This document shows positions 6,166-42,285 of a stretch of DNA of 64,000 nucleotides, piece by piece (the first letter of the stretch is position 1; each line of letters opens with the position of its first letter). The notes below the pieces were generated by a model. It had not been told where the DNA came from, made no database searches, and saw only the letters and a list, made by a program, of their open reading frames with translations. This DNA comes from Saprospiraceae bacterium (lineage in GTDB: Bacteria; Bacteroidota; Bacteroidia; Chitinophagales; Saprospiraceae), in contig JALHQW010000017.1 in NCBI GenBank assembly GCA_022841745.1, forward strand, positions 35,391-99,390, in the 5' to 3' direction. A program made the translations under genes and the position numbers.

Positions 6166-8109
6166 TCAGGGCGTTGACGAACTGCCAGCCAGTTCTATCA
6201 TCGAGGAAAGCTCTTCCAGCAGTTCCTTGTCGTTGCCACTAAAACCGACGCTTTTGAAGCGAATCTTGCCATTGCCATCCACGATGAACTTGGTGGGGAT
6301 GCCTGATACTCCGAACTTGCCCACCACTTCATTGCTGTTGTCCATCAACACGTTGAAGGTGTAGGACTTGGAGGCAATGAAATCGCCAGCCTGCTTCTCT
6401 TTGTTGTCGCCGTTTTCCCAAGTGTCAATGAACAGGAAGGCCACATCTTTCCGGTCTGCGAATTTGTCAACTGCCATCTGCATGGCGGGGAAAGAAGCCT
6501 TGCAGGGGCCGCACCAGGTCGCCCAGAAGTCGAGCACCAGCACCTTGCCCTTCATGCTCTCTAAGCTCACTTCCTCGCCTTTCAGGTTGCGCAGGGTGAA
6601 ACTAGGGGCGGCATCGTTTATCATGGTTTTTACCAATGCTTCGTGCTTTTTGGCTTTGGCTTCTTTTTCCAAGCTGGCCACATATTTTTCATAAGCCGAT
6701 TCGAGGGTATTGTTGGCCATGAAAAGGCGCTTGTGCTGTTCTCCCATTTTGCTGCTGGCGGTGCCTTTGGCAATAAAATCGGCCAACAGCTTTTCGGTGG
6801 ATTTAGCGTCGTTGATTTTTTCAAAATAGGCAGCATAGCGTTCGTTCAACTCGGCATTGGCGAATTCAGCCTGTTCGCAAGCCAAGGTTTGCCACTCAAG
6901 TGCTTTTTTATAGTCGCCATTTTTGTACAAAAGCAGGGCATAGGTATCACCATAGCTGCCCAAGTTCATTTGGTTGTTCTTTTTCCACTTTTTCTTGGAG
7001 TAGTTAGGAGGGCAAGATTTCAAGTCTACTATTTCCTTTTCAACCAGGGCCACGCACTGTGCAGCCAGTTCCAGCCCTTTTTTGGCATCCTTCGGCTCGC
7101 CCTCGATGCTTTCGCCGGAGAGGTCCCAAGCAAGGCTGTTCAAAACACTGGCCTGACGACTGCGGTCGAGAATTTGGCTAAAGTATTTCTCAAAATTGAC
7201 CCAATCGCCAGCTTCGCCATAAAGCATGGCGATGTTTTGGACCCAGCCCAGCATTACCTGTTCGGTAAATGGTTCCTTTACCAATTTGGATTTCGCCGTT
7301 GTGTGGATATTCGCCTTTTCCTCCGCAGTTTTTGCTGCCTTAAACGCATCTGTATATTTCACCCTCGCAAAAAAACCATTGGCAAATTTTTCAGTGCCTT
7401 CAGCCTTCAGTTTTTTCGCCAGGTCCTCTTCCTTGAGGTCGGTGGCAATAGTGTAGGCTATTCGATAGTCTTTGTCCGTTGCTTTTTTATTTCCTGTGAG
7501 TTTCGTGATATGGGTTTTGCAAGTAGCAATCAGCGCAGCGTCATCCTGCTTTTTGGCCAGGGTAGCCACTGCGCTTGCAAAACTTGGGTCATTGAGCGCA
7601 GCAGGGTTCGCTGCTAATTCCTGCTTTGCGAGGTTGATGGCTAGCTCGCTATCAGGCTTGATGCCGCTTGTTCGGGCATACTGCTTGTTGTACAGTCCAG
7701 CCTTCAAGCCGAGTGCGTCCGTGACGGGTGTGGCACGGTCGGCATTATAGACCAAGTTCAGGTAGCCTTTGCCACCATTGTCATCGAATTTTTCCGCATC
7801 CATGTTTTCAAATGCAAAAAACACGAGCTTGGCCGTTTTGGGCAAGGCCAATGTGGTAGTATAGCTTTGGTCAAAAACAAGGTCAAAGGCCATAGGCTCG
7901 ACCAAATCAGCAGTAAAAACATAAGCCACAGCATCCACACCCAACCCATTGAGCGGGCCGCCCTTTGGGTCATAGGTCACGGTGATTTGTTCGCCGCCCA
8001 AAGGCTTTTCTGGCGAAATGGAAAAGGTCTGCGTAAAAGCAGGATTTAGAGCCGCCAGGCAGGCGACTAAAGTGGAGAACAACAATCTTTTCATAGTCGA
8101 AAATTTCAA
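6166..8109 (-). CDS. secreted TlpA-family thioredoxin-fold protein
   Basis: 647 residues. A signal peptide (MKRLLFSTLVACLAALNPAFTQ, preceded by an alternative start five residues upstream) leads into a beta-sandwich N-domain (~30-130), a long helical TPR-like middle and a C-terminal thioredoxin domain from ~510. The redox motif is WATWCGPC and the cis-Pro motif is SGIPT. The family reduces or isomerises periplasmic disulfides. Long TlpA proteins of this build are common in Bacteroidota, but their substrates are mostly unknown. The gene is monocistronic, with a good terminator downstream. Confidence 0.92.
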   Translation of the reverse strand: MKFSTMKRLLFSTLVACLAALNPAFTQTFSISPEKPLGGEQITVTYDPKGGPLNGLGVDAVAYVFTADLVEPMAFDLVFDQSYTTTLALPKTAKLVFFAFENMDAEKFDDNGGKGYLNLVYNADRATPVTDALGLKAGLYNKQYARTSGIKPDSELAINLAKQELAANPAALNDPSFASAVATLAKKQDDAALIATCKTHITKLTGNKKATDKDYRIAYTIATDLKEEDLAKKLKAEGTEKFANGFFARVKYTDAFKAAKTAEEKANIHTTAKSKLVKEPFTEQVMLGWVQNIAMLYGEAGDWVNFEKYFSQILDRSRQASVLNSLAWDLSGESIEGEPKDAKKGLELAAQCVALVEKEIVDLKSCPPNYSKKKWKKNNQMNLGSYGDTYALLLYKNGDYKKALEWQTLACEQAEFANAELNERYAAYFEKINDAKSTEKLLADFIAKGTASSKMGEQHKRLFMANNTLESAYEKYVASLEKEAKAKKHEALVKTMINDAAPSFTLRNLKGEEVSLESMKGKVLVLDFWATWCGPCKASFPAMQMAVDKFADRKDVAFLFIDTWENGDNKEKQAGDFIASKSYTFNVLMDNSNEVVGKFGVSGIPTKFIVDGNGKIRFKSVGFSGNDKELLEELSSMIELAGSSSTP

Positions 8110-27565: not shown

Positions 27566-30100
27566 ATGAAAACCGGACATTTTTTACTCATGACAGCCCT
27601 TTGTTGCTTCTCTGCCAACATTTCCTGGGCACAAAAATCAACCCCTCAAACCAATCTTTCCTCAACAACTGTTCAAGCACCTACCCTCTCAAGGGAGTGC
27701 AGGTCGAATGCTGGGCAAGCTGAGATTGACTACGAGAAAAGCGTTGATAGGGCCGCTTTAAAGAACCGCATGGAGTACTACCTAAGTGGCGGTGGCAACC
27801 GAGCCGTGCCACAGCAGGTGGCGATTCAACTCCATATTGTACGGATGGACGATGGCTCAGGTGGGGTTTCTGTCGCTGACATTCGAGAAGAATTTGAGGA
27901 TTTCGTCAACCCCTACTTTGCTGACGTTGATATCGAGTTTGTGGAGTGCAACCCGGAAGTGTACCACAACAGCACGGAGTACTACGTGCTGGGCAACGGT
28001 ACAGAAGACCCCGACGTAGCCGGAGATGCCATGTCGGCGGCATTCAACGTCGCCAATGTCATCAATATCTACTTCGTGAACGACCCCGATGGCGCTTGTG
28101 GCTGGGCGAGGTTCCCATGGAAGCTGCCTGTGGATTATATCGTAATGGCAAACAGTTGTGCGGACAACAACAGCACCATGGTGCATGAACTGGGCCACTA
28201 CTATGGCTTATACCACACGCATGAAACTTTTGACGGAATGCAACCGGAAAGCGTGACCCGCAACGCCATGGACGGCTGCTATGATTGCAATGTTGACGGC
28301 GACCTACTCTGTGATACAGATGCCGACCCGAACTTATCCTCTACCGCCAATAATTTCCCCAGTTGTGCCTATACCGGAAACGGCACGGATGAATGTGGAG
28401 TATCCTATACCCCTGACATTGACAATATCATGTCCTACGCCGACAAACGGTGCCGGACCATTTTTTCACCCCAGCAATTGGCAAGGATGGCGGTTTACCG
28501 GGATGGCACCCGGGCTTACCTACAGGATGGATGCCCATGCGAGCGGCCGCAGGCCATTTGCAAAAACATCATTGTTGACTTGAATCCTGCTGGAAATGCC
28601 AGCATAACACCTGCAAGCGTGGACTTTGGTTCTACTTGGGACTGCGGGTTTGGTTCTTGGTCCGTCAGCCCAAGCAGCTTCAATTGCAGTGATGTCGGCG
28701 GAAATATGGTGACCCTCACCGTGACGGATGCACTTGGATGGGTAAGCACCTGCAACGCTACCGTCACCATCCGTGATGTGACTGACCCGACAATCACCAA
28801 CCCTGCCAGTGACATGACCGTGGAATGTGACGGCAGTGGCAATGTAGCTGCCTACAATAACTGGCTCAATACCAGGGGCGGCGCCACGGCCGCTGACGCA
28901 TGTGGGGGCAGTTGGTCCAATGGCAGCGACGGATTTTCCAGCGGCTGTGGGGCAACTGGTTCCGAGACGGTGGTATTCACCTACGCCGACCCTTCCGGCA
29001 ATTCCGCTAGCACGATTGCTACTTTCACGATCGAAGACACAACTGACCCGTCATTGACGTGTCCCGAAAACATACACCTGCCTGAATGCGTCGAAACAGC
29101 TTCCTGGGAGGCCATTGCCAGCGACGTATGCGGTAGCGTTGCTATCGTATCAGACCCTCCCTCCGGTTCAGTTTTTGAAAAAGGAACTACCACCATTGTA
29201 ACTGTTACCGCCACCGATGAATGTGGCAACATGAGCGAGTGTACGTTCGAGGTAACACGTGACCCAGACCTGGTGGTGAGCATCAATGCACTCGGCACCA
29301 GCCCGCTGAAAACATGCGCCCTCGGGACAAATGCCAATATTGTCTTAGGCTATGGCGGCGGGCCGACCTGTGCCACATTGACCGCAGTAGGTTCCGGTGG
29401 GCATGCCCCATATACCTACGCTTGGGATGCCCCCGCTGAAGTACCAGCCGGCTATTTTACAGGCGAGGGTACTGCTACCCCCAGTTTTTGCGCCGACTTC
29501 CAGACCGAGGCATGTGCCATCTACACTTTCATGGTGACGGTAACGGATATACATGGATGCACCGAAACGAATACCGTGAATGTAAGTGTCATCAACCCGC
29601 TTTGCACCACTGGTGCTAATCCGAAAGTATGGGTTTGCCACCGGCCGAGCGGGAATCCAGCCAATCAGCAACCAATCTGTGTCAGCTCAAAAGCAGTGGG
29701 TACGCACCTTACCGAAAGCGGACACGATGATTGCCTTGGCCATTGCAATACGACCTGTTCGGCCTATGCTGCCCTGCAAAACGGCAATATCGCAGACCGG
29801 GGAGGCAATACCGAATGGCAATCCCAAATGCATGACCCCTACTACTTGTCGTTAAAGCCCAACCCGTTCAGTTCAACGACGGTGGTTGATTTTTCGGCAA
29901 ACTTTGCTACCAATGCCAAGTTGATTGTCGTTGACATAAATGGGAAGCAGGTGGCCAACCTATTTGATGGCCCGGTAGATAAAAACACCACCAACACCGT
30001 CAATTTTGACGCAGGCAACCTACATTCGGGTATCTATTTTGCTCGATTGATAGGTGAGGACGGCACCAATATCAGTGCTGCCGTCTTGCTCGTCAGGTAA
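27566..30100 (+). CDS. M43-type (pappalysin-like) zinc metalloprotease with T9SS sorting domain
   Basis: 844 residues. Signal peptide to ISWAQ, then the catalytic domain (~90-320) with zinc motif HELGHYYGLYH and Met-turn NIMSY. Bacteroidota M43 proteases often carry the HYR/PKD-like domains seen here (~325-690; TVTDALGWVSTCNATVTIRD, CPENIHLPE). The C-terminus is a T9SS type A domain (LSLKPNPFSSTTVVDF ... GIYFARL). It is secreted and probably degrades proteins outside the cell. Two hairpins follow the stop. Confidence 0.9.
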   Translation: MKTGHFLLMTALCCFSANISWAQKSTPQTNLSSTTVQAPTLSRECRSNAGQAEIDYEKSVDRAALKNRMEYYLSGGGNRAVPQQVAIQLHIVRMDDGSGGVSVADIREEFEDFVNPYFADVDIEFVECNPEVYHNSTEYYVLGNGTEDPDVAGDAMSAAFNVANVINIYFVNDPDGACGWARFPWKLPVDYIVMANSCADNNSTMVHELGHYYGLYHTHETFDGMQPESVTRNAMDGCYDCNVDGDLLCDTDADPNLSSTANNFPSCAYTGNGTDECGVSYTPDIDNIMSYADKRCRTIFSPQQLARMAVYRDGTRAYLQDGCPCERPQAICKNIIVDLNPAGNASITPASVDFGSTWDCGFGSWSVSPSSFNCSDVGGNMVTLTVTDALGWVSTCNATVTIRDVTDPTITNPASDMTVECDGSGNVAAYNNWLNTRGGATAADACGGSWSNGSDGFSSGCGATGSETVVFTYADPSGNSASTIATFTIEDTTDPSLTCPENIHLPECVETASWEAIASDVCGSVAIVSDPPSGSVFEKGTTTIVTVTATDECGNMSECTFEVTRDPDLVVSINALGTSPLKTCALGTNANIVLGYGGGPTCATLTAVGSGGHAPYTYAWDAPAEVPAGYFTGEGTATPSFCADFQTEACAIYTFMVTVTDIHGCTETNTVNVSVINPLCTTGANPKVWVCHRPSGNPANQQPICVSSKAVGTHLTESGHDDCLGHCNTTCSAYAALQNGNIADRGGNTEWQSQMHDPYYLSLKPNPFSSTTVVDFSANFATNAKLIVVDINGKQVANLFDGPVDKNTTNTVNFDAGNLHSGIYFARLIGEDGTNISAAVLLVR

Positions 30101-30158
30101 GCAGGAGCAACCAGAAAAGGCTAATTTAAAAGTCTATTGAATAGCTGTTGTTTAAGTA

Positions 30159-30260
30159 ACTTATTGCGCCAAAGGCGCAATAAGTCTAACGCAGGGCGCT
30201 AAGACGCAAGACGCAATGGTTGAGAATTATAGTCAACCTGTATCCTTGCGCCTTAGCGCC
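30159..30260. terminator. double hairpin after metalloprotease gene
   Basis: The first hairpin is ACTTATTGCGCC-AAA-GGCGCAATAAGT (30159-30185). The second has arms GGCGCTAAGACGCAAG (30195-30210) and CTTGCGCCTTAGCGCC (30245-30260), followed by TTTT. Confidence 0.65.
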
Positions 30261-30321
30261 TTTTCGTTGATAAATATTTGAGGTCGTTTTGAAAACGACT
30301 TACAATACAGTCCCGTCTTAG

Positions 30322-30528
30322 TTTGAAGAGTTGGCGGTATTGAGGGGGAATGGCTAGCTATGGGATGAGATTTCTGAATGATTGCTGGCGGCGTTTTGTA
30401 GAAGGCGAATTGTAGCTTTGGAAAAGGAGGCAGGTTGCCATGCTTATGTCTGTCGGAGATAGGCATATTTGCGGTTCAAGTCTGCGTGCCCCTTTGGTGG
30501 AGACTATGAACCAGCGTTTGCGTTTATG
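30322..30528. repeat. ~205-bp dispersed repeat, copy B
   Basis: Diverged copy of 22413-22620 (shared TTTGAAGAGTTGGCGGTATT start, TGTCTGTCGGAGAT middle and GCGTTTAT end). It replaces the C-terminal coding part of hsdS. Confidence 0.8.
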
Positions 30529-31584
30529 AGAGGGGAGGCTTTTTGCGCCGGGCCATTGAAATGTGGAAAACGCTGCGGGAAGGACCTTTGAGACTGGGTA
30601 ATTATTTCTTAACCGAATTGACTTGACACACATTTCTGAACATTCCCTCAAAAAATTACCACTTACTATTAGTGGTTTTATTAAAGCTACACTTCTTACT
30701 ATCACAAATTCATGCTCGCCATCAACAATAGAAGACCTCCCAATTGTTGCGCCAACACTTACAATCATTACATCTCCTTTTTCTGGGTTACATCGCTTTA
30801 TGGACTTTATGTAATCAGCTTCACTGCAAAAATCAACATTGTTATAGTCAATAAATCCATCCCTAACGTTTTTAGCAGAGAGTAACATTTTACCACTCGC
30901 AGTTTTCTGTGGAGTTAAATGTTCGCCATCAGTAATTTGCGAAGACACTTCCATCATGTTACACCACAACCACCCCTCCGGCAACTCAAACGGCATCTCC
31001 TCCGCTTTCACGGGCGGCAGCGGCTTTTCCTTTTTGCCTGTGGCCGCTTTCTCGGCTTGGATGCGGCGCAGCAGTTCCGAGGCGGGTTCTTGGTGGGGGG
31101 TGGCTTGCCGCCATTTCGCCGTCAGTTGGCCCTGCACGGCTTCTTGCAGGATGGACTGACGCAGGCGGGTGAGGAGGGTTTGTGGGTGGGTGAGTTCGGA
31201 GCGGAGTTCGGTTTGCTTCGCTGAAATATGCTCGAATTTGGCGACCCATTTTCGCTGAAAATCAATCGGCGGCAAAGGAATCTCCAGCTCCTCCAGCGCC
31301 TTCAAGGGCAAGGTCACATTTGCCATGCCCCGCATCAGCGGCACGAAAAGTTCTTCCTTGAAAACATCGCAGTAATAGTAAAGGAACAACAGCTCCAATA
31401 CATCATGGTCTTTCGGAATCACTGCGCAAAGGATGGTGCCTACTGCAAATTTCCCTTCTTGGTAATGTATGCGATTGATACTCGCCTTGCCATGACCCGA
31501 ACCAAAAACCATCGGAATGACAATCGCCTTCGCATCGAATTGGTATTCGTTGTGCGTTTTCCGCTCCTCGGCCATCGTCACCAT
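30358..31584 (-). pseudogene. hsdS: type I restriction specificity subunit HsdS, truncated at both ends
   Basis: The open frame gives 408 residues. Recognisable HsdS parts are: the later half of the first target-recognition domain (MVTMAEERKTHNEYQFDAKAI..., GKFAVGTILCAVIP), the central conserved helix (LTRLRQSILQEAVQGQLTAKWR), and the second recognition domain (ELPEGWLWCNMMEVS ... GDVMIVSVGATIG). The expected first ~25 residues are missing: upstream of PGDYPMV the frame runs into repeat cluster 1. The C-terminal conserved helix is missing as well: from about 30590 downstream the frame reads through repeat copy B (SHKRKRWFIVSTKGARR...). DNA recognition would need the full protein, so it is probably non-functional. 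Confidence 0.8.
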
Positions 31585-31604
31585 CGGGTAGTCGCCGGGG
31601 CATG

Positions 31605-31862
31605 AGGGCTGCCGTGGTTTACGCCCCGCTGTGCGTCCTTTTTGTCATTGCCGTAGGCAAACCGCAACGCCACGAGGGCAACGTCATGAGGGCAACGTCA
31701 TAAGGGCAACGTCACGTCGGGACAACACACATGACGTCGCAGTTTGCCTACGGCAATGACAAAGCGGCTTGCACACATGACGTCGCAGTTTGCCTACGGC
31801 AATGACAAAGCGGCTTGCACACATGACGTCGCTGGTCTCGACCTATGGTCGAGATGACAAAA
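31605..31862. repeat. REPIN-like repeat cluster 1
   Basis: Forward arm TTTGTCATTGCCGTAGGCAAA at 31641-31661. Reverse arms TTTGCCTACGGCAATGACAAA at 31743-31763 and 31789-31809. A related hairpin with another stem (TCTCGACC-TAT-GGTCGAGATGACAAA) lies at about 31836-31861. It opens with the same GCCGTGGTTTACGCCCCGC lead-in seen in clusters 2 and 3. It lies between hsdS and the GIY-YIG gene. Confidence 0.9.
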
Positions 31863-31869
31863 GGGACTG

Positions 31870-32238
31870 CTAAACCTCACCCTCAGCTTCTTCTTTGCCA
31901 AGTACCTCCAGCAATTCCGCATTTGGCGGCCACATCCCGCAAATGTCTTCATTTAGAAAACGCCAAGTCGGATTTATCTCTGCAATCAAAGCTTCTTTTT
32001 GCTCTCTTGTCATTTCCTTTAGCAGCTTCTCTTTGCCGATGGCATTGTAAACATATTGATGCCATTCAAACCAAACCAAATTGAAGCAATAGTATTTGCC
32101 TGCAAAACTGTCCTTGTTTCCCCTGTTTTGATAATGTTCCACCAATCTCCGGGTCAAGTTATTGGTCATGCCAGCATACAAAACCGTTTTCCTTGGATTG
32201 GTCGTTAGGTACACCCAAAAGTTGTAAGTTTTTGCCAT
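31870..32238 (-). CDS. GIY-YIG nuclease family protein
   Basis: 122 residues from MAKTYNFWVYLTTNPRKTVL. GIY-YIG signature: VYLTTN ... VLYAGMTNNLTRRLVEHYQN, with the Arg and the later Glu (NAIGKEKLLKEM) of the fold. It resembles stand-alone YhbQ/UPF0213-type proteins. It lies inside the hsd locus, with repeat clusters starting 8 bases after its stop and about 65 bases before its start. The upstream extension of the frame (MALRFAYGNDKSERE) is translated repeat and is not included. Whether the nuclease acts on the repeats is untested. Confidence 0.88.
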   Translation of the reverse strand: MAKTYNFWVYLTTNPRKTVLYAGMTNNLTRRLVEHYQNRGNKDSFAGKYYCFNLVWFEWHQYVYNAIGKEKLLKEMTREQKEALIAEINPTWRFLNEDICGMWPPNAELLEVLGKEEAEGEV

Positions 32239-32304
32239 AGTAGTTCGGTTTAATATTTTCTTAGTTTGTAGCTCTTGCTCTTTTTCTATTCGCTCCCTTT
32301 CGCT

Positions 32305-32537
32305 TTTGTCATTGCCATAGGCAAACCGCAACGCCATGAGGGCCGCCGTGGTTTACGCCCCGCTGTGCGTCCTTTTGTCATTGCCGTAGGCAACCCGCAA
32401 CGCCACGAGGGCAAGTCACGACGGGACAACACACATGTTGTCGCAGTTTGCCTGCGGCAATGACAAAGCGACGCACAGCGGGACGTGAACCGTGACGCAC
32501 ACACATGACGTCGCAGTTTGCCTACGGCAATGACAAA
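32305..32537. repeat. REPIN-like repeat cluster 2
   Basis: Forward arms at 32305-32325 (loop ATA) and 32374-32394. Reverse arms at 32447-32467 (loop TGC) and 32517-32537. The stems TTGCC/GGCAA and the ATGACAAA tail are constant while the loops differ. It lies between the GIY-YIG start and the end of hsdM. Confidence 0.9.
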
Positions 32538-32597
32538 AAGGCGTCGGAACTTCAAAAAATGAATAGGAAAAAACCAAAGCAAAGAAAAGAAAAAAAC

Positions 32598-33860
32598 TCA
32601 CAACTCCGCCTCCAGCGCCCGCAACAACCCCATGCTCCGCTCGAAGCTCTGCCCCAACATCCCCAACAACTCCGCACTCGAATGCCCGGCCTCCTCCACG
32701 GCCCGGTTCGGGTTTTTGATGTCGAGGTCGAAGCCCCGCTGCCGGATGGTCTCGATGTCCACCCGCCAAGCCTGCTCCGTCTCCTGGCGGTCGTGCCACC
32801 ATGCCTCGATGGGGCGGAACTCCTCCCGGCGGATGGGCTTCGTCTTGCTGTACGATTTCTGTCCTTCGGGCAGGCGGTGCTCGTAGTACCAAATCTCCTT
32901 CGTGGGCTGCCCCTACTCGAAAAACAGCAGGTTCGTCGCAACGGTCGCATACGGCGAAAACACCGAATTGGGCAGGCGGATGATGGTGTGCAGCTTGCAG
33001 TCCGTCAGCCACTTCTCCCGGATGCGGGCCTTCACGCCCTCGCCCGTCAGCGAGCCGTCGGGCAGGACGATGGCCGCTCGACCACCGTCTTTCAGCAGGT
33101 GCATCATCATCACGAGGAAGAGGTCGGCGCTCTCCTTGGTGCGGTAGTTCAGCGGGAAATTCTCCTCGTTGCTATTGGCCACCGTGCCACCGAAGGGCGG
33201 ATTGGCGAGGATGACGTCCACCCGGTCATGCTGGCGGTACTCGCTCAGGGGCTTGTCGAGGGCCTCCCGGTAGGTGATGTTCGGCAGTTCCACGTCGTGG
33301 AGGATGAGGTTTCCCGATAGGCAACTCCGAAATTTCGGCAGACTCTGTGACATCATAAGTGCCGCTGTGGTTTACGCCCCGCTGTGTGTCGCTTTGTCAT
33401 TGCCGTAGGCAACCCGCAACGTCACGAGGGCAAGTCAGGACGGGACAAAACACATGATGTCGCAGATTGCCTTTGGCAATGACAAAAAGGGAGAATGCAG
33501 GTTGGTGCCGCTCTACCTATAGTTGTTGTTGCCCTCGAACACCTCCCGCACCATGAACGAGCGGGGGTCGTGCGCTGGCAAGTCTCGCAGCGCCGGGAAC
33601 AGCCGCTGGTCAATGAACTGCTGCAACTCATCCCCGGTGATGCCCTCCGAATTGGCCGCCCAGTTGCGCCACTGGAACTCCGTCGGCACGGGCGACACGT
33701 AGTCATCGTGCAGGATTTCCTGCTCCTGGTCCTTGTCGTCCATGATTTTCAGGAAGAGCATCCAAGCCAATTGCTCGATGCGCTGGCCATCGCCGGAGAG
33801 GCCACGGTCTTCCCGCATGATGTCTCGGATGGATTTGATGAGGGAGGAAAGGTTGGGCAT
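32598..33860 (-). pseudogene. hsdM: type I DNA methyltransferase HsdM, disrupted
   Basis: The N-terminal part is intact (33860-33513; MPNLSSLIKSIRDIMREDRG ... FEGNNNYR, then a stop). The middle is replaced by repeat cluster 3. The frame resumes near 33325 with NLILHDVELPNITYREAL and the catalytic motif NPPFGG, and runs to LLFFE, where a TAG at 32913-32915 interrupts it. The same frame then continues (GQPTKEIWYYEHRLPEGQ ...) to a stop at 32598-32600. About 150 residues carrying the SAM-binding motif I (DPACGTGGFL type) are absent, so the protein cannot methylate. A TATCTTTG box lies upstream at 33910-33917. Confidence 0.88.
33358..33486. repeat. REPIN-like repeat cluster 3 inside hsdM
   Basis: Forward arm 33393-33413 (loop GTA) and reverse arm 33466-33486 (loop TTT), with the lead-in GCCGCTGTGGTTTACGCCCC. 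A separate small palindrome CCGAAATTTCGG (33327-33338) sits at the boundary with resumed hsdM sequence. Confidence 0.9.
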
Positions 33861-33909
33861 AAGTGGTTTGTCGTCTGTATTAAGTTGTAGTTGTTTTGGA
33901 AATCAAGCG

Positions 33910-33917
33910 CAAAGATA
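33910..33917 (-). promoter_or_regulatory. -7 box (TATCTTTG) for hsdM
   Basis: Exact TAnnTTTG on the minus strand, 49 bases before the hsdM start. The 33922-34104 repeat element begins 5 bases upstream of it, so the original -33 region appears to be displaced. Confidence 0.5.
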
Positions 33918-33921
33918 ATGG

Positions 33922-34104
33922 CCCATCTATCATCTTGTAACCCGCCGTTTCAACGGCGGGGCTGGGCGATACCCTGACTCACATCTATCTTCTTTACAGG
34001 ACATCCGCATCAGCGGGATGTGATGTTCTGAATAGATGTTAGATGGGGTTTATGGGTTGTGGCATCCCCCCGTTGAAACGGGGGGTTACAAGATGATAGA
34101 TGGG
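33922..34104. repeat. REPIN-like element of a second family (hairpin CCCGCCGTT)
   Basis: 39-base arms (33922-33960 and 34066-34104) are inverted copies of each other. Each arm carries its own 9-bp hairpin: CCCGCCGTT-TC-AACGGCGGG on the left and CCCCCCGTT-GA-AACGGGGGG on the right. The arms differ only by a paired G-to-C and C-to-G change that keeps the stem. Outside the hairpin both arms read CCCATCTATCATCTTGTAA. Confidence 0.9.
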
Positions 34105-34135
34105 ATTCAGCCTTAACTTGAACACGTACTATCAA

Positions 34136-34699
34136 TCAATAACTCATAAATTTCTCCAATTTCTGCATCAATGTGCCAGTAGAAAGAAGGTATTTCTCAC
34201 CTTTTACCCACAAATTAATATACTGGATTGACGAGGTTCCTTTGGACTTACGATAGCTAATGAATAAGTCTTCGGAAACGGTGAAGTCGTGATAAACCTC
34301 CTCACTGGTTAGCACTTTTTCTTTTTTGATTTTGTCCAATAGAATCTTGTAATTGTCCAAAATTGACTTGCATTGGGGCAGAGTCAGGGTGATATAAGTA
34401 TATTCAGCCACCACAGTTTGGTCTCCTTTGAATTTTTGCCTTGCTTGGTAATACTTGTCAGCCCCTATCACGAGTCCCTTTTTAGAATCGTATTTGTAGC
34501 CAGTCAGTTCTAAATACGAACCTCCTCCGTATGAAGCCCCTCTGAAAATTGAGTACGTCCTGATGTTACTGTGCTTTCCTTCAACATGTTGTTCAATATT
34601 GTTCTTGATGTACTTTTCAGTGATGTATCGGGTTCGCATGCACCCAGAAAAGAGTAATGTAAGCGACAAAAAACTGAGCAAAGTGAAATTCTTTTTCAT
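34136..34699 (-). CDS. hypothetical lipoprotein
   Basis: 187 residues with a lipoprotein signal (lipobox LLFSGC). The mature part is Lys/Tyr-rich with alternating strands and no recognised domain. It is AT-rich compared with the flanking housekeeping genes, as is its neighbour at 34848-37082. It sits inside the hsd locus on the same strand. Confidence 0.7.
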   Translation of the reverse strand: MKKNFTLLSFLSLTLLFSGCMRTRYITEKYIKNNIEQHVEGKHSNIRTYSIFRGASYGGGSYLELTGYKYDSKKGLVIGADKYYQARQKFKGDQTVVAEYTYITLTLPQCKSILDNYKILLDKIKKEKVLTSEEVYHDFTVSEDLFISYRKSKGTSSIQYINLWVKGEKYLLSTGTLMQKLEKFMSY

Positions 34700-34847
34700 T
34701 GTGATTTTAGTTTAAAAAAAAGGTAAAAAATGAATAAATTCTGAGTCAGAAAAGTTGCGTACCTGCAATAGCTAAGTGGCTTTATGTCTGCTTAGATATA
34801 CTTGTGATAACTGGCATACTCTAAACAACTGGGTTAAATTTTCACTC

Positions 34848-37082
34848 TCATATATCTTTAATATCCTCAGGAATTTTTGGATCAATTTTGAGCTTGATGT
34901 AATTCACGATTATTGAATAATTATGGTATTTTTCCCAAAGGTCTTTACTGATAAAAAAAGTCACAACACCCCAACTAACTCCTAAAATTAGGCTCAAAAT
35001 CCAATCCACCTTTAAGTCTTCCCAGATACTTTGAACATTCCAGTCGTTTTTTAAAAGACAATGTAATAAGATAGCAAATAGGACTACAAGTGCTAACCCA
35101 AATCTTATCCATGCATTTGTTCTCCATTTTTTAAGCTCACTTTCTTCAAATTGTTGTCGTTTTTCTTTTTTTAGAAGATTAATTTCTTTTGTTAATTTCT
35201 CTGACTTCTCTTTCTCACCTTTGTAAATTTCGGAAAACTGTTCAGCATTGTACTCTATCCTACTTTTTACCTGTTTAGAAAGGTCTAACTCCTCTTCAAC
35301 TACCCTTCGTTGTTCAAGTAATTGCAATTTTTCATGATTTTTTTGCTTTTCCAAATCGTCTAATTGCCTTTCATGTTCTTGATTTAATCTTGATAGTTTC
35401 TCATTAATTTCTTTGTTTTGAGTTGCTAAAATTTGGTTTTCAATAGTGATTTGATTTTCTATTATTTCGACTTGCTTCTCATAGTCATCCGTTGCCGCAT
35501 TTAGCCTGCCCAACAAAACTTGGTCTCTAACAATTTTAACTTTTGTTTCAAATGAAGCACCGTGAAAATTATCATTGATTATTTGTAATGCCTTTGAGCG
35601 AGTCCCAGAATAATCAATTTCAAACGATCTAAAATCGGGAATTGAAAAGGTTTCAATAAAACGTTTGTTCGTTTCATAATTGTTTTCTACAAAAGGCCTA
35701 ATTATTTGAAGAAAAACACTAGGGCTTAATACAAATGCAACTTCCCAGCTCTTCTTATAGTAAATTTTTTCAAATTTTGCCAATATGTAATCTGAACTTA
35801 AAAAGAAAGCATTACAATCTAAAAATTTTGATTTTTTCCTATTCAAAGACCTAACCTCCCTTAATACTGTAATATCATGTTGGAATTGTAGAAATGATTT
35901 TGGCTTGCGATGAGGTGATTTTTCATAGAATTTTTGATACTCCTCTATATCCTCTTCAATTTCAACATGGTCACTAAGACTAACTACGTTTGATATATAT
36001 TCTGATAGGCCTAAATCGTTTAAAATAAGGTCAACATGCTCATATTTTTCAAGAAATATCTTGGCATCGATTTGATTTTCTATATTCTGTCTATGATAGA
36101 GCATTTCCAAAGGACTTAACTCTTCAATTAAACAGGCAACTCTACTTGTCTCTTTAGTCCATTTTGTGCTTTTCAGAATGAATGACCTTGCATCGAATGA
36201 CCTTCTGAATTCAGAGAGAGTTAATGGGTGATATAACAACTTAAATTTAAGCCTGCTTTGCTTTGCTTCTTTAAGTATTTCAATTGCTGAAGAATCTTCT
36301 GAATTCCTGTGTAAATTTAAAAGTCCAAAAATAAAATTCGTATCAAGAAACAAAGCTAAATCATTAAACTTATAGTTTAAAAAACCGTTGGTATCAGAAT
36401 CGTTAGTAATTGCAAAACTTGTAAAGGTTGCATCAGCCAATTGTGCGATATAATTTGCACGTAATTCATTAGCATTTAAGATGAAATTATTAACTATTGG
36501 GAAAAACAAATCTTCTGAAATTATATTGTTGTTCTTCCTCAATGCTTCATCTGCAATTGCTTGAAGGCTTTTTTGTTCTCCCTCAGTGATTTTTGCGTTA
36601 GGTTTCAAAATTAGAGTCGTTTGAACCCCATGCTGTTCAAATACCATTGACAAATATGACTTTAGTGAATTCCAAATTTCAACTTTTAATTCCGAAATCT
36701 CTGGATGTAGAAATATTTCTTCAGAAAACCAATCGTCTTTAACTTCTTCTTCTGTCTTATTCGACTCTTCAATCCTTTCTAAAATTAATTTACTTTTCTC
36801 ATTACTTACATTTAACACTTTAGAGTTTTGATTCTTTATCAAATATTTTTTATCAATCAACTTATCTATGTTTGACAAAATGGAGTTCAATCTAATAGTA
36901 ATGCCGTATACGGATTCTATATTTTTCGAAACATGATGTTCGTTTTTACAATCTGCATTTGGTTTTTGCACTAATGAGTATAAGATAATATTTTGAACTA
37001 TTTCGTCATACTTATTATCTTGGGACAGTGCCAAGATATGACTCAATTTAGAAAACACTTTTTGAAAATTAATTGGGTTCAT
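34848..37082 (-). CDS. PIN-like nuclease domain / coiled-coil / membrane protein in hsd locus
   Basis: 744 residues, family not recognised by name. Residues 1-235 are helical. Residues ~240-440 look like a PIN-type nuclease: LFLDTNF (D247), HPLTLSEFRR (E291), QHDITVLREVR (D403), DCNAFFLSSDYIL (D422, D431). Residues ~525-655 form a long coiled coil rich in Glu/Lys/Gln. Two membrane helices follow at ~665-685 and ~700-720 (FGLALVVLFAILLHCLL; SLILGVSWGVVTFFIS), with a short cytosolic tail. The gene is intact, AT-rich, and lies 28 bases after hsdR. A membrane-anchored RNase that supports restriction in defence is an inference from context. Confidence 0.8.
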   Translation of the reverse strand: MNPINFQKVFSKLSHILALSQDNKYDEIVQNIILYSLVQKPNADCKNEHHVSKNIESVYGITIRLNSILSNIDKLIDKKYLIKNQNSKVLNVSNEKSKLILERIEESNKTEEEVKDDWFSEEIFLHPEISELKVEIWNSLKSYLSMVFEQHGVQTTLILKPNAKITEGEQKSLQAIADEALRKNNNIISEDLFFPIVNNFILNANELRANYIAQLADATFTSFAITNDSDTNGFLNYKFNDLALFLDTNFIFGLLNLHRNSEDSSAIEILKEAKQSRLKFKLLYHPLTLSEFRRSFDARSFILKSTKWTKETSRVACLIEELSPLEMLYHRQNIENQIDAKIFLEKYEHVDLILNDLGLSEYISNVVSLSDHVEIEEDIEEYQKFYEKSPHRKPKSFLQFQHDITVLREVRSLNRKKSKFLDCNAFFLSSDYILAKFEKIYYKKSWEVAFVLSPSVFLQIIRPFVENNYETNKRFIETFSIPDFRSFEIDYSGTRSKALQIINDNFHGASFETKVKIVRDQVLLGRLNAATDDYEKQVEIIENQITIENQILATQNKEINEKLSRLNQEHERQLDDLEKQKNHEKLQLLEQRRVVEEELDLSKQVKSRIEYNAEQFSEIYKGEKEKSEKLTKEINLLKKEKRQQFEESELKKWRTNAWIRFGLALVVLFAILLHCLLKNDWNVQSIWEDLKVDWILSLILGVSWGVVTFFISKDLWEKYHNYSIIVNYIKLKIDPKIPEDIKDI

Positions 37083-37110
37083 AAGATGAATAAAATTAAG
37101 GAATTATCAT

Positions 37111-39810
37111 TCACTCCACTCGATAAATCTCCCCCTCCAACTCCCTGACCGCCGCCAAAAACCGCTCCTTCCCGCCAAACTCAGTAATAATCTCCTTTTG
37201 AGTACCGAATTCAGTCAAGGGTCGCACTTTCAGCACGTCGAGGGATTCGAGGTTTTCGATGCCTTCGTCAGCGTATTTGTCAAGCAGTGCTTCGAGCACC
37301 CGGCGGGATTGTTTGCCGTATTTGGTAAAGTAGTCCCGCTTTTTCATGATCAACGCCCTCTCCCGGCGTGTAAGGGGTGGCTGGTCGTAAGCCACGTGGC
37401 AGATTCCCTCCGGGAATGACAATGCTGTATCCACGGCACTGCGCAAAATTTCAACGGGGATGCCCTGTTCTGCCAGTTCTTCCAAGAGGGCCTGTTTGCG
37501 CTCGGCGCTGTTCCATCTGCTGAGGAAAGCATCGAGCGAGGCGTATTGCCCGGTCAGCAGTTGGCGGGCATGGTCTTTCAGGCTGGTGGTGACGGGTTTG
37601 CCGTCGTTGTCGAAATGGAGTTCCCGGCTTATGAGCACGGTCACGTCCACGCCGTTTACATATACTTTTTGGGCGTAGTCCGCCTTGGCGGACGGTTCGC
37701 CAAAGAAGTCCTTTGTTTTGGGCGGCAGTATTTCGAGGGCGGTTCCAGTCTCTTCGTCTATCACGGGTACATCCTCTAGGGCTTCCTGTTCCTCGTCAAT
37801 GACGGTGGACAGGTCTTCGTCCTCGTGGTAGGTCCTTGCGGGCACAATCGGGTCGCCATCGAAGGCGGGGTCAGCAAAGAGGTCGGTCACGTAAGTTCCC
37901 TTCGGGGATGACAAAAAGCGCATTTTGCCATACTCCTCGTTGATGCGGGTGCCCCTGCCGATGATTTGCTTGAACTTGGTCATGCTGGCGATATTGGCAT
38001 CCAGCACGATGACCTGGCAGGTCTGGGCAACCACCCCAGTCGTCATTAGCTCGCTGGTGGTGGCAATGACGGGGTAGCGCTCCTCCGGGTTCGAGATTCC
38101 CTTCGGGAATGACAAACAGCGGTAGCCTTCGTCGTTGTCGTCCGTGATTTGCATCACGTATTTATAGTTGAGGGCTACGAGGTCGGTCCCGAGTACACGG
38201 GAGGTGAGGGCGCTGCGCATCCGCTCGGCGTGGTCTATGTCCTTTTCCCCTTTTTTGTCATTGCCGTAGGCAATCTGCGACGTCGTGTTAACGCCACGTT
38301 TGTCATGGCCGTAGGCCACCTGCGACGTCATGTGTTTTGTCCAATATGACTTGCCCTCGTGATGTTGCAGTTTGCCTTCGGCAATGACAAAAGCGGCACA
38401 CACACGACGTTGCGGTTTGCCTACGGCAATGACAAAAAAATAGGGGTTGCCATCCTTGTCAGTCTTGTCCTTTTCGGGCCGCCAGCCTTCGAGGTCCACG
38501 CTCAGGCCGATGCGCACAGTGCGGTACGGGGCGAGGAAGCCGTCGTTGATGCCCTGCCTCAGGGAGTAGGTATAGACGGGTTCGCCGAAGTAGTCGTAGT
38601 TGCTGGCGTCGTGGGTTTCCTTGGGGGTGGCGGTGAGGCCAAGTTGGCTGGCCCCGGTGAAGTAGTCGAGGATGGTGCGCCATGCGCTGTCGGCGGTGGC
38701 GCTGTCTCGGTGGCACTCGTCTATGACGATTAAATCAAAAAAGTCAGCGCTGAACTGTTGGAACAAGGATTGGGGCTCAACGTAGGCCGGAACCCCAGTT
38801 CCGGCGTCAATAATTGTTCTTTCCACCGGAACTGGGGTTCCGGTGTACGTTCCCACCGGAACTGGGGTTCCGGTGTACGTTCCCACCGGAACTGGGGTTC
38901 CGGTGTACGTTCCCACCGGAACTGGGGTTCCGGTGTACGATGGGGCATCTACGGTGAGGCCCTGGTAGAGGGCGAGGTAAATCTCGTAGGCTTTGTCCAC
39001 TTTGCCGTTTTTGACGACGGTCATTTGTTCGCCAAAATGCTTGAAATCGCCCCGCTTGGTTTGGCTGATGAGGGCGTTGCGGTCGGCCAGGAAGAGGATG
39101 CGCTTTTTGACGCCGGATTTCCAGAGCCGCCAGACGATTTGGAAGGCGGTATAGGTCTTGCCGGTGCCCGTGGCCATGACGAGCATGAGCCGCTGCTGCC
39201 CCTTGGCGATGGCCTCCACCGTCCGGTTGATGGCGATTTGCTGGTAGTAACGGGGATGCCTGCCGCTTCCGTCGGTGTAGTAGTTCTGTGCGGCAATGCG
39301 TTCTTCTTCGGTGGTGGCGATGCCTTTGTAGCGTTTGTAGCGCTCCCAGAGGTCGGCGGGGCTGGGGAATTGGTCGAGGGGGAGTTCTTGTTCGATGGCA
39401 TCGGGGTCAAGGTTTACTAAACTTTCAAAGTTTAGTAAACCTGTGCCCAGGGAGGTGCCCACGCTCCGGTCATGAAACAAAAACCAATCCCCGTTGCTGC
39501 TGAACACGCAGGGGATGTCCAGTATCCGTGCATACTCCAGTGCTTGTTGGATGCCTGCCCGCACGGAGTGGTTGTTGTCCTTCGCCTCGTTAATGGCGAT
39601 GGGGATGTTCGGCTTGTAGTAGAGGATATAATCGGCCCGCTTGCCCTTGCCCCGTGCGGCGAGTTTGCCCCGCACGTAGATTTTACCGTCGGTATAGGAG
39701 ACTTCTTCGAAGAGCTGGGTGTGCTTGCTCCAGCCAGCGGCTTCGAGGGCGGGGGTGATGTACTTGGTGCAGATGTCCCGCTCGGAGAGTAGTTTTTTGT
39801 TTAGGGGCAT
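37111..39810 (-). CDS. hsdR: type I restriction endonuclease subunit HsdR with six translated palindromic repeats
   Basis: 899 residues, open frame. The N-terminal PD-(D/E)xK nuclease carries RADYILYYKPNIPIAINEAK. The helicase has motif I ATGTGKT, motif II DECHR, LGLTATPKET, and motif VI IGRGTRINEEYG. The C-terminal domain ends EGEIYRVE. Compared with the usual HsdR sequence, segments are replaced by translated repeats: LLNFESLV (39412-39440), GTPVPVGTYT x4 (38786-38935), a 61-codon hairpin array where helicase motif IV (KTIVFC) is expected (38254-38436), SFPKGI (38096-38116), SSPKGT (37895-37917) and SFPEGI (37401-37423). The frame is kept through all of them. Loss of motif IV makes translocation doubtful. 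Confidence 0.9.
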   Translation of the reverse strand: MPLNKKLLSERDICTKYITPALEAAGWSKHTQLFEEVSYTDGKIYVRGKLAARGKGKRADYILYYKPNIPIAINEAKDNNHSVRAGIQQALEYARILDIPCVFSSNGDWFLFHDRSVGTSLGTGLLNFESLVNLDPDAIEQELPLDQFPSPADLWERYKRYKGIATTEEERIAAQNYYTDGSGRHPRYYQQIAINRTVEAIAKGQQRLMLVMATGTGKTYTAFQIVWRLWKSGVKKRILFLADRNALISQTKRGDFKHFGEQMTVVKNGKVDKAYEIYLALYQGLTVDAPSYTGTPVPVGTYTGTPVPVGTYTGTPVPVGTYTGTPVPVERTIIDAGTGVPAYVEPQSLFQQFSADFFDLIVIDECHRDSATADSAWRTILDYFTGASQLGLTATPKETHDASNYDYFGEPVYTYSLRQGINDGFLAPYRTVRIGLSVDLEGWRPEKDKTDKDGNPYFFVIAVGKPQRRVCAAFVIAEGKLQHHEGKSYWTKHMTSQVAYGHDKRGVNTTSQIAYGNDKKGEKDIDHAERMRSALTSRVLGTDLVALNYKYVMQITDDNDEGYRCLSFPKGISNPEERYPVIATTSELMTTGVVAQTCQVIVLDANIASMTKFKQIIGRGTRINEEYGKMRFLSSPKGTYVTDLFADPAFDGDPIVPARTYHEDEDLSTVIDEEQEALEDVPVIDEETGTALEILPPKTKDFFGEPSAKADYAQKVYVNGVDVTVLISRELHFDNDGKPVTTSLKDHARQLLTGQYASLDAFLSRWNSAERKQALLEELAEQGIPVEILRSAVDTALSFPEGICHVAYDQPPLTRRERALIMKKRDYFTKYGKQSRRVLEALLDKYADEGIENLESLDVLKVRPLTEFGTQKEIITEFGGKERFLAAVRELEGEIYRVE
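37401..37423. repeat. ATTCCC-hairpin repeat in hsdR (1)
   Basis: ATTCCC-TCC-GGGAAT followed by GACAAT. Translated on the minus strand as SFPEGI. Confidence 0.8.
37895..37917. repeat. ATTCCC-hairpin repeat in hsdR (2)
   Basis: GTTCCC-TTC-GGGGATGACAAAA; one wobble pair in the stem. Translated as SSPKGT in place of the usual strand before the LFADPAFDGDP motif. Confidence 0.75.
38096..38116. repeat. ATTCCC-hairpin repeat in hsdR (3)
   Basis: ATTCCC-TTC-GGGAATGACAAA, a perfect 6-bp stem with the ATGACAAA tail. Translated as SFPKGI. Confidence 0.85.
38254..38436. repeat. REPIN-like array inside hsdR (cluster 4)
   Basis: Two forward arms (38254-38285, 38299-38330) and two reverse arms (38371-38391, 38416-38436). 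The second forward arm has TGGCC-GTA-GGCCA instead of TTGCC-GTA-GGCAA: both sides of the stem changed together. The array is fully translated (FVIAVGKPQ / QIAYGNDKK-type peptides). Confidence 0.92.
38786..38935. repeat. 30-bp tandem hairpin repeat inside hsdR
   Basis: Four direct copies at 38824, 38854, 38884 and 38914, each CACCGGAAC-TGGG-GTTCCGGTG. An inverted copy GCCGGAACCCCAGTTCCGGC lies at 38786-38805. The period of 30 bases keeps the frame (GTPVPVGTYT). It sits between helicase motifs Ia and II. Confidence 0.93.
39412..39440. repeat. perfect palindrome inside hsdR
   Basis: GTTTACTAAACTTT-C-AAAGTTTAGTAAAC: 14-bp arms around one base, translated as GLLNFESLVN. Confidence 0.9.
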
Positions 39811-39836
39811 GAGGTTTTGGGGGACATGCGGAGATT

Positions 39837-39859
39837 TTCCAAGTTTTTAAAACTTGGAA
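39837..39859. repeat. palindrome in the hsdR leader
   Basis: TTCCAAGTTTT-T-AAAACTTGGAA, 27 bases before the hsdR start. It is related to the palindrome in the photolyase gene at 4466-4498. The rest of the gap 39811-40134 shows no gene. Confidence 0.8.
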
Positions 39860-40134
39860 GGTCTGGTGCTGAGATGAATGGGAGGTTTGAGGGCGTCATG
39901 CGCTTGGTTGTTGAGTACGGGCGTGAAGGTATATGCTTTTTCTAAAATAAGAAAACCCTATAGCGGTTTTTTAAACCATTTCTAAGCTTTGAATGGGCCT
40001 CACCACGCTGAAGCTTGCGCCTTGTGGCTACACCAGCACCACCATTAGCTTTCCGAAAAGAGGGCTTTCCGCAAGGCGTTGGCACTTAGGCAATTCTCCA
40101 TTTTTTTCCCCAACTTTGCCCCAAATTCTACCAC

Positions 40135-42285
<2,151 letters not shown>

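What the first reader, a model, noticed from the sequence alone, without database searches (positions are those of the whole stretch)
37111..39810. hsdR translated through six different hairpin or palindromic repeats while keeping its frame
Seen: LLNFESLV palindrome, a 4x30-bp GTPVPV hairpin array, a 183-bp REPIN-like array, and three ATTCCC hairpins all lie within one open frame of 899 codons. Known: HsdR normally has helicase motif IV (KTIVFC-like) where the 183-bp array now sits. The repeats seem to replace host codons, not simply add to them (for example SSPKGT where FTILDFKGA-like sequence is usual). Inference: either the elements are selected to be translatable, like Rickettsia palindromic elements, or the ORF survives by chance after repeat-mediated gene conversion.
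Basis: partly seen in the sequence, partly recalled or inferred. Interest (0 to 1): 0.88.

Follow-up and report, generated by a model that had tools for sequence, protein, structure and literature searches.

The report
Restriction gene patched by in-frame hairpins
A bacterial DNA-cutting-enzyme gene carries at least seven short repeated DNA hairpins inside its reading frame, several of them sitting where normal codons should be, and a mostly clean second copy in the same genome shows what was overwritten.

Summary
HsdR (37111-39810, minus, 899 codons, EcoAI/FtnUII family) stays open through at least seven hairpin or palindrome sites. A paralogous operon in the same genome (contig C1; aligned blocks 87-96% identical) has native sequence at most of them. 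It shows that S1 and S2 are loop insertions, and that S3 (motif IV), S5, S6 and S7 replace codons conserved in 77-79 of 80 named homologue loci.

The elements are REP-like hairpins; one family flanks a RAYT-like gene. The ATTCCC hairpin lies in frame in 17 other genes of this genome (e.g. mfd, uronate isomerase). Among clusters with coding on both sides no clear frame-breaker was seen, but 63 of 88 clusters could not be judged.

So the RPE-like reading is broadly right. New here are codon replacement, and 24-30-bp patches shared by two species at identical breakpoints although the flanks follow another allele.

This HsdR is probably no longer a working motor: motif IV is gone and hsdM is broken; motors, and apparently hsdM, are also damaged in congeners G004 and G008. 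Why the frame survives is unexplained; recent death after purifying selection (window-C1 dN/dS 0.15) is likeliest.

The parts
37111..39810 (-). hsdR ORF, 899 codons, EcoAI/FtnUII family, frame open through all elements
39410..39442 (.). S1: palindrome with perfect 16-bp arms (LLNFESLV) in the loop between nuclease and helicase domains; the loop carries other palindromes in C1, G004 and G008
38785..38940 (.). S2: four 30-bp GTPVPV hairpin units plus one inverted copy in a helicase loop; the same palindrome flanks a RAYT-like gene on contig C24; C1 and G008 have other palindromes at this loop
38242..38442 (.). S3: head-to-head array of four ATTGCC-type hairpins (repeat core 38254-38436); 67 residues stand where C1 has 46 native ones including helicase motif IV; predicted fold -105 kcal/mol
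38185..38202 (.). S4: small TCCCG/CGGGA hairpin, +2 codons (TSRVLGTD vs TRWNAD)
38092..38124 (.). S5: ATTCCC hairpin (YRCLSFPKGIS) in place of native KRELENFT (GKxEL pattern in 79 of 80 homologue loci); same patch in G004
37891..37920 (.). S6: ATTCCC-type hairpin (RFLSSPKGTY) in place of native YFTILDFRN (pattern in 77 of 80); absent from G004 and C1
37402..37425 (.). S7: ATTCCC hairpin (ALSFPEGI) in place of EVDLFDLI, 24 nt for 24 nt (pattern in 78 of 80); same patch in G004
32598..33860 (-). broken hsdM: a hairpin-bearing stretch (about 33312-33496, 185 bp) stands where C1 has 338 bp including LDPACGTGG; phase kept but four stop codons in the frame
31641..32537 (.). further ATTGCC hairpins between hsdS and hsdM (10 of the genome's 85 exact ATTGCC copies lie in this operon)
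30358..31584 (-). hsdS-like gene of the same operon

Best explanation
The gene is a paralogue of an hsdR with an intact motor in the same genome, and has been hit repeatedly by REP-like hairpins of at least three sequence families. SHOWN: the elements lie in frame; S1 and S2 are insertions into two loops that hold different palindromes in each allele that retains the loop (S1: four alleles; S2: three); at S3 and S5-S7 conserved codons are gone and hairpin sequence stands in their place; the same kind of hairpin lies in frame in 17 other genes of this genome; the S5 and S7 patches are shared with another species' hsdR although the flanks are not. INFERRED: hairpins enter DNA often, by RAYT-type single-strand transposition or by template switching or short-patch conversion at hairpins; mainly events that keep the frame survive in genes under selection (Rickettsia-element-like tolerance); some events trim or overwrite host codons, and a hairpin allele can then pass between alleles as a 24-30-bp patch. 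The operon then lost function recently (motif IV overwritten, hsdM broken), so the present protein is probably a relic and C1 the working system.
For: C1 paralogue, 863 aa, with native sequence at S3-S7; native motifs at S3/S5/S6/S7 by pattern in 77/79/77/78 of 80 named loci and, by stricter patterns, in 30/30/27/30 of 31 aligned homologue proteins, none of which holds the hairpin peptides; dN/dS window-C1 0.15 over 693 unmasked codons; exact ATTGCC hairpin in 10 of 14 genus genomes and 0 of 26 outside; 21 of 88 ATTCCC clusters with both flanks coding in one frame against 3 in different frames on one strand, while the classifier recognises 986 of 1000 synthetic frameshifts; 15 of the 17 other genes match a Pfam family; Mfd without the hairpin in 13 of 13 congeners and uronate isomerase in 6 of 6 congeners that have the gene; 8 of 17 GTPVPV palindromes flank a RAYT-like ORF; window hsdM broken, only partial hsdM matches in the fetched G004 and G008 stretches.
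Against: In three operons with damaged motors (window, G004, G008) the hsdR frame is nevertheless kept; under plain decay about six core length changes should not all be multiples of three (about 1 in 700, but the window ORF was chosen for being open, so only the two G004 and G008 deletions are free of that bias). 63 of 88 ATTCCC clusters could not be judged, and a hairpin that ended a gene would hide among them. No experiment shows mobility or translation. The right-hand junction homology I looked for was weak (S7 host site rank 140 of 2578). The RAYT match is below NCBIfam's cut-off (74.9 vs 80). S7 may instead mean that C1 was restored to native sequence.
Confidence: 0.6

Rival explanations
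1. The patched, motor-less HsdR is kept translatable by selection for another role: a decoy R subunit that docks on the C1 methylase complex and tunes restriction, or a leader ORF whose uninterrupted translation prevents polarity on downstream operon genes.
For: Frame kept in the four genus alleles seen although 3 have damaged motors (in G008 continuity across a contig break is not shown); residues D60/E75/K77 (nuclease role recalled) and the EcoEI_R_C domain are retained; long open ORFs lie downstream in the window.
Against: Window-branch changes hit near-invariant residues (G109W, D594V); hsdM is broken in the window and only partial in the G004 and G008 stretches; no expression data.
Confidence: 0.15
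2. Pure decay: the operon is dead and the open frame is luck.
For: hsdM has four stops; motif IV lost; S3 modelled with very low confidence (pLDDT about 25); the ORF was singled out because it is open.
Against: All hsdR length changes against C1 are multiples of three, no stop in 899 codons, dN/dS 0.15 against C1; the G004 and G008 deletions, found by homology, are also in frame.
Confidence: 0.2
3. Assembly chimera at repeats.
For: Repeats trouble the assemblies elsewhere (N runs in loci L158 and L166; a contig break at the S1 loop in G008).
Against: No N in window 30001-40000; a whole-genome search with the C1 protein found the segments missing from the window copy only in C1; S5 and S7 recur in the separate assembly G004; all junctions in frame.
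Confidence: 0.05

Closest known systems
Rickettsia palindromic elements (RPE; as reviewed in PMC10969869 and PMC2229807, passages read; original papers not read)
   Same: Dispersed palindromic repeats inserted in frame in unrelated, partly conserved genes; also found between genes.
   Different: Here units are about 20-40 bp, the host is Bacteroidota-like by homology, five reading frames are used, several copies stand in place of host codons, and one gene carries at least seven.
CGTC-tagged REPs and intragenic REPs (PMC3733652, passages read)
   Same: TGTC tag (a listed variant of CGTC), AT at the stem base, head-to-head dimers, reported in Bacteroidetes, known inside replication and repair genes (cf. 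mfd and a dnaG here); RPE-4 and RPE-6 are counted among them.
   Different: Stem 6 bp and loop 3 nt instead of 8-9 and 4-5; tail mostly CCT, not CCA. The passages I read describe insertions and mention no codon replacement.
REPIN/RAYT systems (PMC3116915, passages read)
   Same: Hairpin doublets; the GTPVPV palindrome lies on both sides of a RAYT-like gene.
   Different: In P. fluorescens SBW25 only 14 of 1,067 REP 16-mers overlap genes, whereas 21 of 88 ATTCCC clusters are intragenic here (definitions differ); no GTAG tag in the GTPVPV unit.
EcoAI-family HsdR
   Same: D60/E75/K77, GTGKT, DECH, EcoEI_R_C domain.
   Different: Motif IV and neighbouring segments overwritten; hsdM partner broken.

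Membership tests
EcoAI/FtnUII-type HsdR | match above the family cut-off | tested here: met
   NF046051 904.2 bits, cut-off 550
EcoAI/FtnUII-type HsdR | intact helicase motor including motif IV | tested here: not met
   S3 stands where the KTIVFC segment is in 77 of 80 homologue loci by pattern
EcoAI/FtnUII-type HsdR | cognate HsdM in the operon | tested here: not met
   four stops and a 338-bp replacement in window hsdM
RPE-like protein-coding palindromes | repeats in frame in several unrelated genes | tested here: met
   21 of 88 own clusters, 18 genes counting hsdR; 15 of the 17 others match Pfam; orthologue comparison done only for hsdR, mfd and uronate isomerase, and for a G004 primase outside this set
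RPE-like protein-coding palindromes | product translated | not testable with these tools
   no expression data
CGTC-tagged REP superfamily | CGTC/TGTC tag | tested here: met
   TGTC precedes the stem; it is part of the search pattern, so met by construction for the 97 copies, and seen directly at S5-S7
CGTC-tagged REP superfamily | stem 8-9 bp, loop 4-5 nt, CCA-like tail | tested here: not met
   6-bp stem and 3-nt loop for S5 and S7; consensus tail CCT, at S5 and S7 TCT
CGTC-tagged REP superfamily | head-to-head dimers | tested here: met
   S3 and many +- pairs of the ATTGCC type
REPIN/RAYT | repeat flanks a RAYT gene | tested here: met
   GTPVPV palindrome at C24:91035 and at seven places in 91920-92381, around ORF C24:91106-91906
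REPIN/RAYT | gene is a RAYT by family cut-off | tested here: inconclusive
   NF047646 74.9 vs 80; Pfam Y1_Tnp 24.8 vs 23
REPIN/RAYT | GTAG tag | tested here: not met
   no GTAG in the 30-bp GTPVPV unit

The most novel reading that the evidence does not exclude
REP-like hairpins in this genus act as mobile 24-30-bp codon-replacement patches: the same patch is installed at identical breakpoints in different species and alleles with the frame conserved. The reading frame of the patched, motor-less HsdR is itself maintained, so hairpin patching is a recurrent way of rewriting, and perhaps disarming, a restriction motor without stopping its translation.
Probability: 0.2. Interest if true: 0.82.

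Novelty: new variant of a known kind. Interest (0 to 1): 0.58.

Why it matters
Selfish repeats inside coding genes are known, but what they displaced is seldom visible. Here one genome holds a patched and a mostly clean copy of one gene, and congeners hold intermediate patterns, so it can be asked directly whether such hairpins are inserted, trimmed or exchanged as patches, and how protein-coding repeats pass the filter of selection.

Tried and rejected
Assembly error: rejected as main reading (no N; segments missing from the window copy found only in C1 when the C1 protein was searched against the genome; S5 and S7 recur in G004). A dedicated translated frame as in a designed element: rejected, since the 21 own in-frame ATTCCC clusters use the FVIPEGN frame 9 times, LSFPKG 6, FPSGMTK 3, CHSRREP 2 and VPFGNDK 1; the frame with an internal TGA is not used (my count by eye, a paired cluster counted once). 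Junction microhomology as mechanism: inconclusive (S7 host 14-mer is rank 140 of 2578 for similarity to the ATTGCC repeat tail), so not claimed. Structure prediction: the 28-sequence alignments are shallow, the patched protein scored mean pLDDT 55.1 and a Runella homologue 66.0; used only as weak support. Fold search was not run. Literature: seven searches. None of the passages I read (PMC10969869, PMC3116915, PMC3733652, PMC2229807) describes codon replacement by REP hairpins; these are passages, not whole papers. One original Ogata paper (PMC186582) was not held; the others were not tried. A reference-list title in PMC3733652 (Higgins 1988) shows that gene conversion was proposed for REPs long ago.

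Limits. The codon classifier is not independent gene calling: it was trained on ORFs of at least 400 aa in the fetched loci, window included, and 63 of 88 clusters have one or no coding flank and were not resolved. The 21 include the three hairpins in window hsdR and two in one gene (L262). Copies with one mismatch, such as those in L201 and L262, may be partly fortuitous. Genus restriction was tested only for exact patterns (ATTGCC; ATTCCC: 4 of 14 genus genomes, 0 of 26 others); with two mismatches the ATTCCC pattern is in 13 of 14 genus genomes and the reversed control gives 0 or 1 per strand, and other genera were not searched that way. The S1 and S2 families were not searched outside the genus. 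On re-checking I lowered the main reading from 0.62 to 0.60 and raised pure decay from 0.17 to 0.20, because the window ORF was picked for being open, which weakens the multiples-of-three argument.
Full report
OBSERVATION. The ORF 37111-39810 on the minus strand is open for 899 codons and scores 904.2 bits (cut-off 550) for the EcoAI/FtnUII HsdR family. A seventh small hairpin lies at 38185-38202 (S4). The array is predicted to fold into one long hairpin of -105 kcal/mol.

A MOSTLY CLEAN COPY IN THE SAME GENOME. The window is contig C17 of an 8.43-Mb genome in 178 contigs. Contig C1 carries a second hsd operon with an 863-aa HsdR, a 513-aa HsdM and an HsdS-like ORF. Aligned blocks are 87-95% identical in hsdR and 93-96% in hsdM. 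C1 has native sequence at S3 to S7. Against it the window copy shows: S3, 67 residues for 46 native ones including KTIVFC (motif IV; motif name recalled); S5, YRCLSFPKGIS for KRELENFT; S6, RFLSSPKGTY for YFTILDFRN; S7, ALSFPEGI for EVDLFDLI, 24 nt for 24 nt; S4, two extra codons. Of 80 named homologue loci, 77, 79, 77 and 78 hold the native motif of S3, S5, S6 and S7 by pattern anywhere in the locus's three forward frames; one of 80 holds an LS[FL]PK[GA] string somewhere, position not checked. In the 31 of these 80 that I aligned as proteins, stricter patterns gave 30, 30, 27 and 30 of 31, and 0 of 31 holds the hairpin peptides. S1 and S2 are different: the homologues have short loops there (14-15 residues in 29 of 31 and 11-12 in 30 of 31, the rest not parsed), while C1 itself has a 3 x 17-aa palindromic array at S1 and a palindrome with 16-bp arms at S2. 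These are two permissive loops.

OTHER ALLELES IN THE GENUS. G004 (404 of 480 residues identical over its C-terminal block) has the S5 and S7 hairpins, lacks S3 and S6, carries another palindrome (15-bp arms) at S1, and has an in-frame deletion of the helicase region around residues 190-386. G008 has a palindrome and hairpins at S1 up to a contig end, a 16-bp-arm palindrome at S2, and a hairpin-bearing stretch that joins residue 321 to residue 769 in frame; continuity across the contig break is not shown. hsdM is broken in the window (four stops, 338 bp replaced); in the fetched stretches of G004 (19 kb) and G008 (9 kb) only partial hsdM matches were found, and their whole genomes were not searched for hsdM. 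Thus the only allele seen with an intact motor, C1, has elements only in the loops.

SHORT PATCHES. At S7 the 60 nt on the left differ between window and C1 at 1 position and between window and G004 at 21; on the right the numbers are 3 and 6. Yet the 24-nt site is shared with G004 (1 difference) and not with C1. At S5 the flanks also follow C1 (5 and 6 differences against 12 and 12 of 60) while the 30-nt site matches G004 (1 difference). Either the same patch arose or was installed twice at the same breakpoints, or C1 was restored to native sequence by recombination. The data do not decide this.

THE ELEMENTS. The exact ATTGCC hairpin occurs 85 times in the genome (reversed-pattern control 0), in 10 of 14 genus genomes and in 0 of 26 outside the genus; 10 of the 85 lie in this operon. 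The ATTCCC hairpin occurs 97 times at up to one mismatch, control 0. The GTPVPV palindrome occurs, at up to one mismatch, 17 times in this genome and once in one of the other 13 genus genomes; 8 of the 17 lie on both sides of an ORF that matches the REP-associated transposase family at 74.9 bits (cut-off 80) and Pfam Y1_Tnp at 24.8 (cut-off 23). The S1 palindrome, at up to three mismatches, has 37 places in this genome and 60 in G010.

GENOME-WIDE FRAME TEST. All 97 ATTCCC copies were fetched; they fall into 88 clusters. A codon-usage classifier on the 210 nt either side gave 21 clusters with both flanks coding in one frame, 3 with both flanks coding on one strand in different frames, 1 with different strands, 49 with one coding flank and 14 with none. 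Of the 3, two show a gene end and a gene start and one is marginal. Random positions in the same loci gave 49% one-frame and 0.7% same-strand-different-frame (n = 4000), and 986 of 1000 artificial frameshifts were recognised. So hairpins are depleted inside genes, and those that could be judged keep the frame. Three of the 21 are in window hsdR; the other 18 are in 17 genes, of which 15 match a Pfam family, among them uronate isomerase (UxaC), an MFS transporter, a LytTR regulator, a chorismate-binding enzyme and Mfd (UvrB_inter, CarD_TRCF_RID and helicase domains). From relatives I fetched a further 16 clusters: 3 one-frame (two in G004 hsdR, one in a G008 P-type ATPase), 6 with one coding flank, 7 with none. 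Orthologue checks: Mfd has the hairpin in this genome and in none of 13 congeners, G008 having a different insert there; uronate isomerase is longer by about 16 residues than in the 6 congeners that have it; a G004 primase (DnaG by Pfam) shares an ATTGCC-type hairpin with G006 only, 2 of 10 loci compared out of 16 fetched. In the ATTGCC family, paired hairpins elsewhere mostly lie just outside genes; one 60-bp pair lies in frame in a membrane-protein-like ORF.

SELECTION. Window against C1: dS 0.25, dN 0.038, ratio 0.15 over 693 codons outside the repeats. By parsimony with G004 as outgroup the window branch has 50 synonymous and 30 nonsynonymous changes, C1 25 and 10, and 18 are ambiguous. 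The pair has therefore mostly diverged under purifying selection. The window branch also changes near-invariant residues (G109W, D594V). An AlphaFold model gives mean pLDDT 55.1, with about 25 in S3, against 66.0 for an intact Runella homologue; this is weak, because both alignments are shallow.

READING. Most likely these hairpins spread often, most copies inside genes are removed, and in-frame ones survive, as with Rickettsia palindromic elements and intragenic REPs. At S3 and S5-S7 the event took host codons with it. The operon then lost function. What is not explained is why the frame is kept in all four alleles seen. If the core changes in window, G004 and G008 (about six length changes, S5 counted once) had happened in dead genes, all being multiples of three would have a chance of about 1 in 700; but the window ORF was chosen for being open, and only the two deletions in G004 and G008 are free of that bias. 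The changes may have occurred before or during the loss of function, or the frame itself may still be under selection.

KNOWN WORK. In-frame palindromic elements in Rickettsia are reviewed in PMC10969869 and PMC2229807 (passages read). PMC3733652 (passages) defines GTAG- and CGTC-tagged REPs, counts RPE-4 and RPE-6 among CGTC REPs, reports CGTC REPs in Bacteroidetes and intragenic REPs in replication and repair genes. The present hairpins have the TGTC tag and the head-to-head pairing but shorter stems, so they are CGTC-REP-like and not filed as members. PMC3116915 (passages) reports that only 14 of 1,067 REP 16-mers overlap genes in P. fluorescens SBW25.

Noticed in passing
L121:2929-3693 (G004): A RAYT-like ORF next to the partial hsdM contains translated palindrome-like segments of its own (DLSDFENLTGL, FRNLSGL); weak NF047646 match, 41.4 bits against a cut-off of 80.
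   Followed up: partly
window 40135-40251: N-terminus of a methylmalonyl-CoA mutase ORF (Pfam) reads [22 protein letters not shown], apparently translated AATCCGC-type short repeats; such repeats also flank many ATTCCC hairpins.
   Followed up: no
L281 (G008 mfd): At the linker where G000 Mfd has the ATTCCC hairpin, G008 has an unrelated repeat-like insert (LLPSPAGEGPGVR), so the linker looks like a shared landing site.
   Followed up: no
L144:13068 and L156:7102: Two similar FG-GAP-type ORFs carry a hairpin at the same position (PIRNPLSFPKGT and PIRNPSLSSPKGT).
   Followed up: partly
L122:2182-2331, L124 about 6246-6422, L126:4134-4304: Stray matches to the hsdR 3' end in G008 and G011.
   Followed up: no
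window 37180-37212 (S8): Segment EFGTQKEIITE differs from C1 and G004 (QFGSPIEILRE, EFGSPIEILRE) by a block of changes without a recognised hairpin.
   Followed up: no
window 39832-39864: Another imperfect palindrome (CCAAGTTTT/AAAACTTGG) just upstream of the hsdR start.
   Followed up: no
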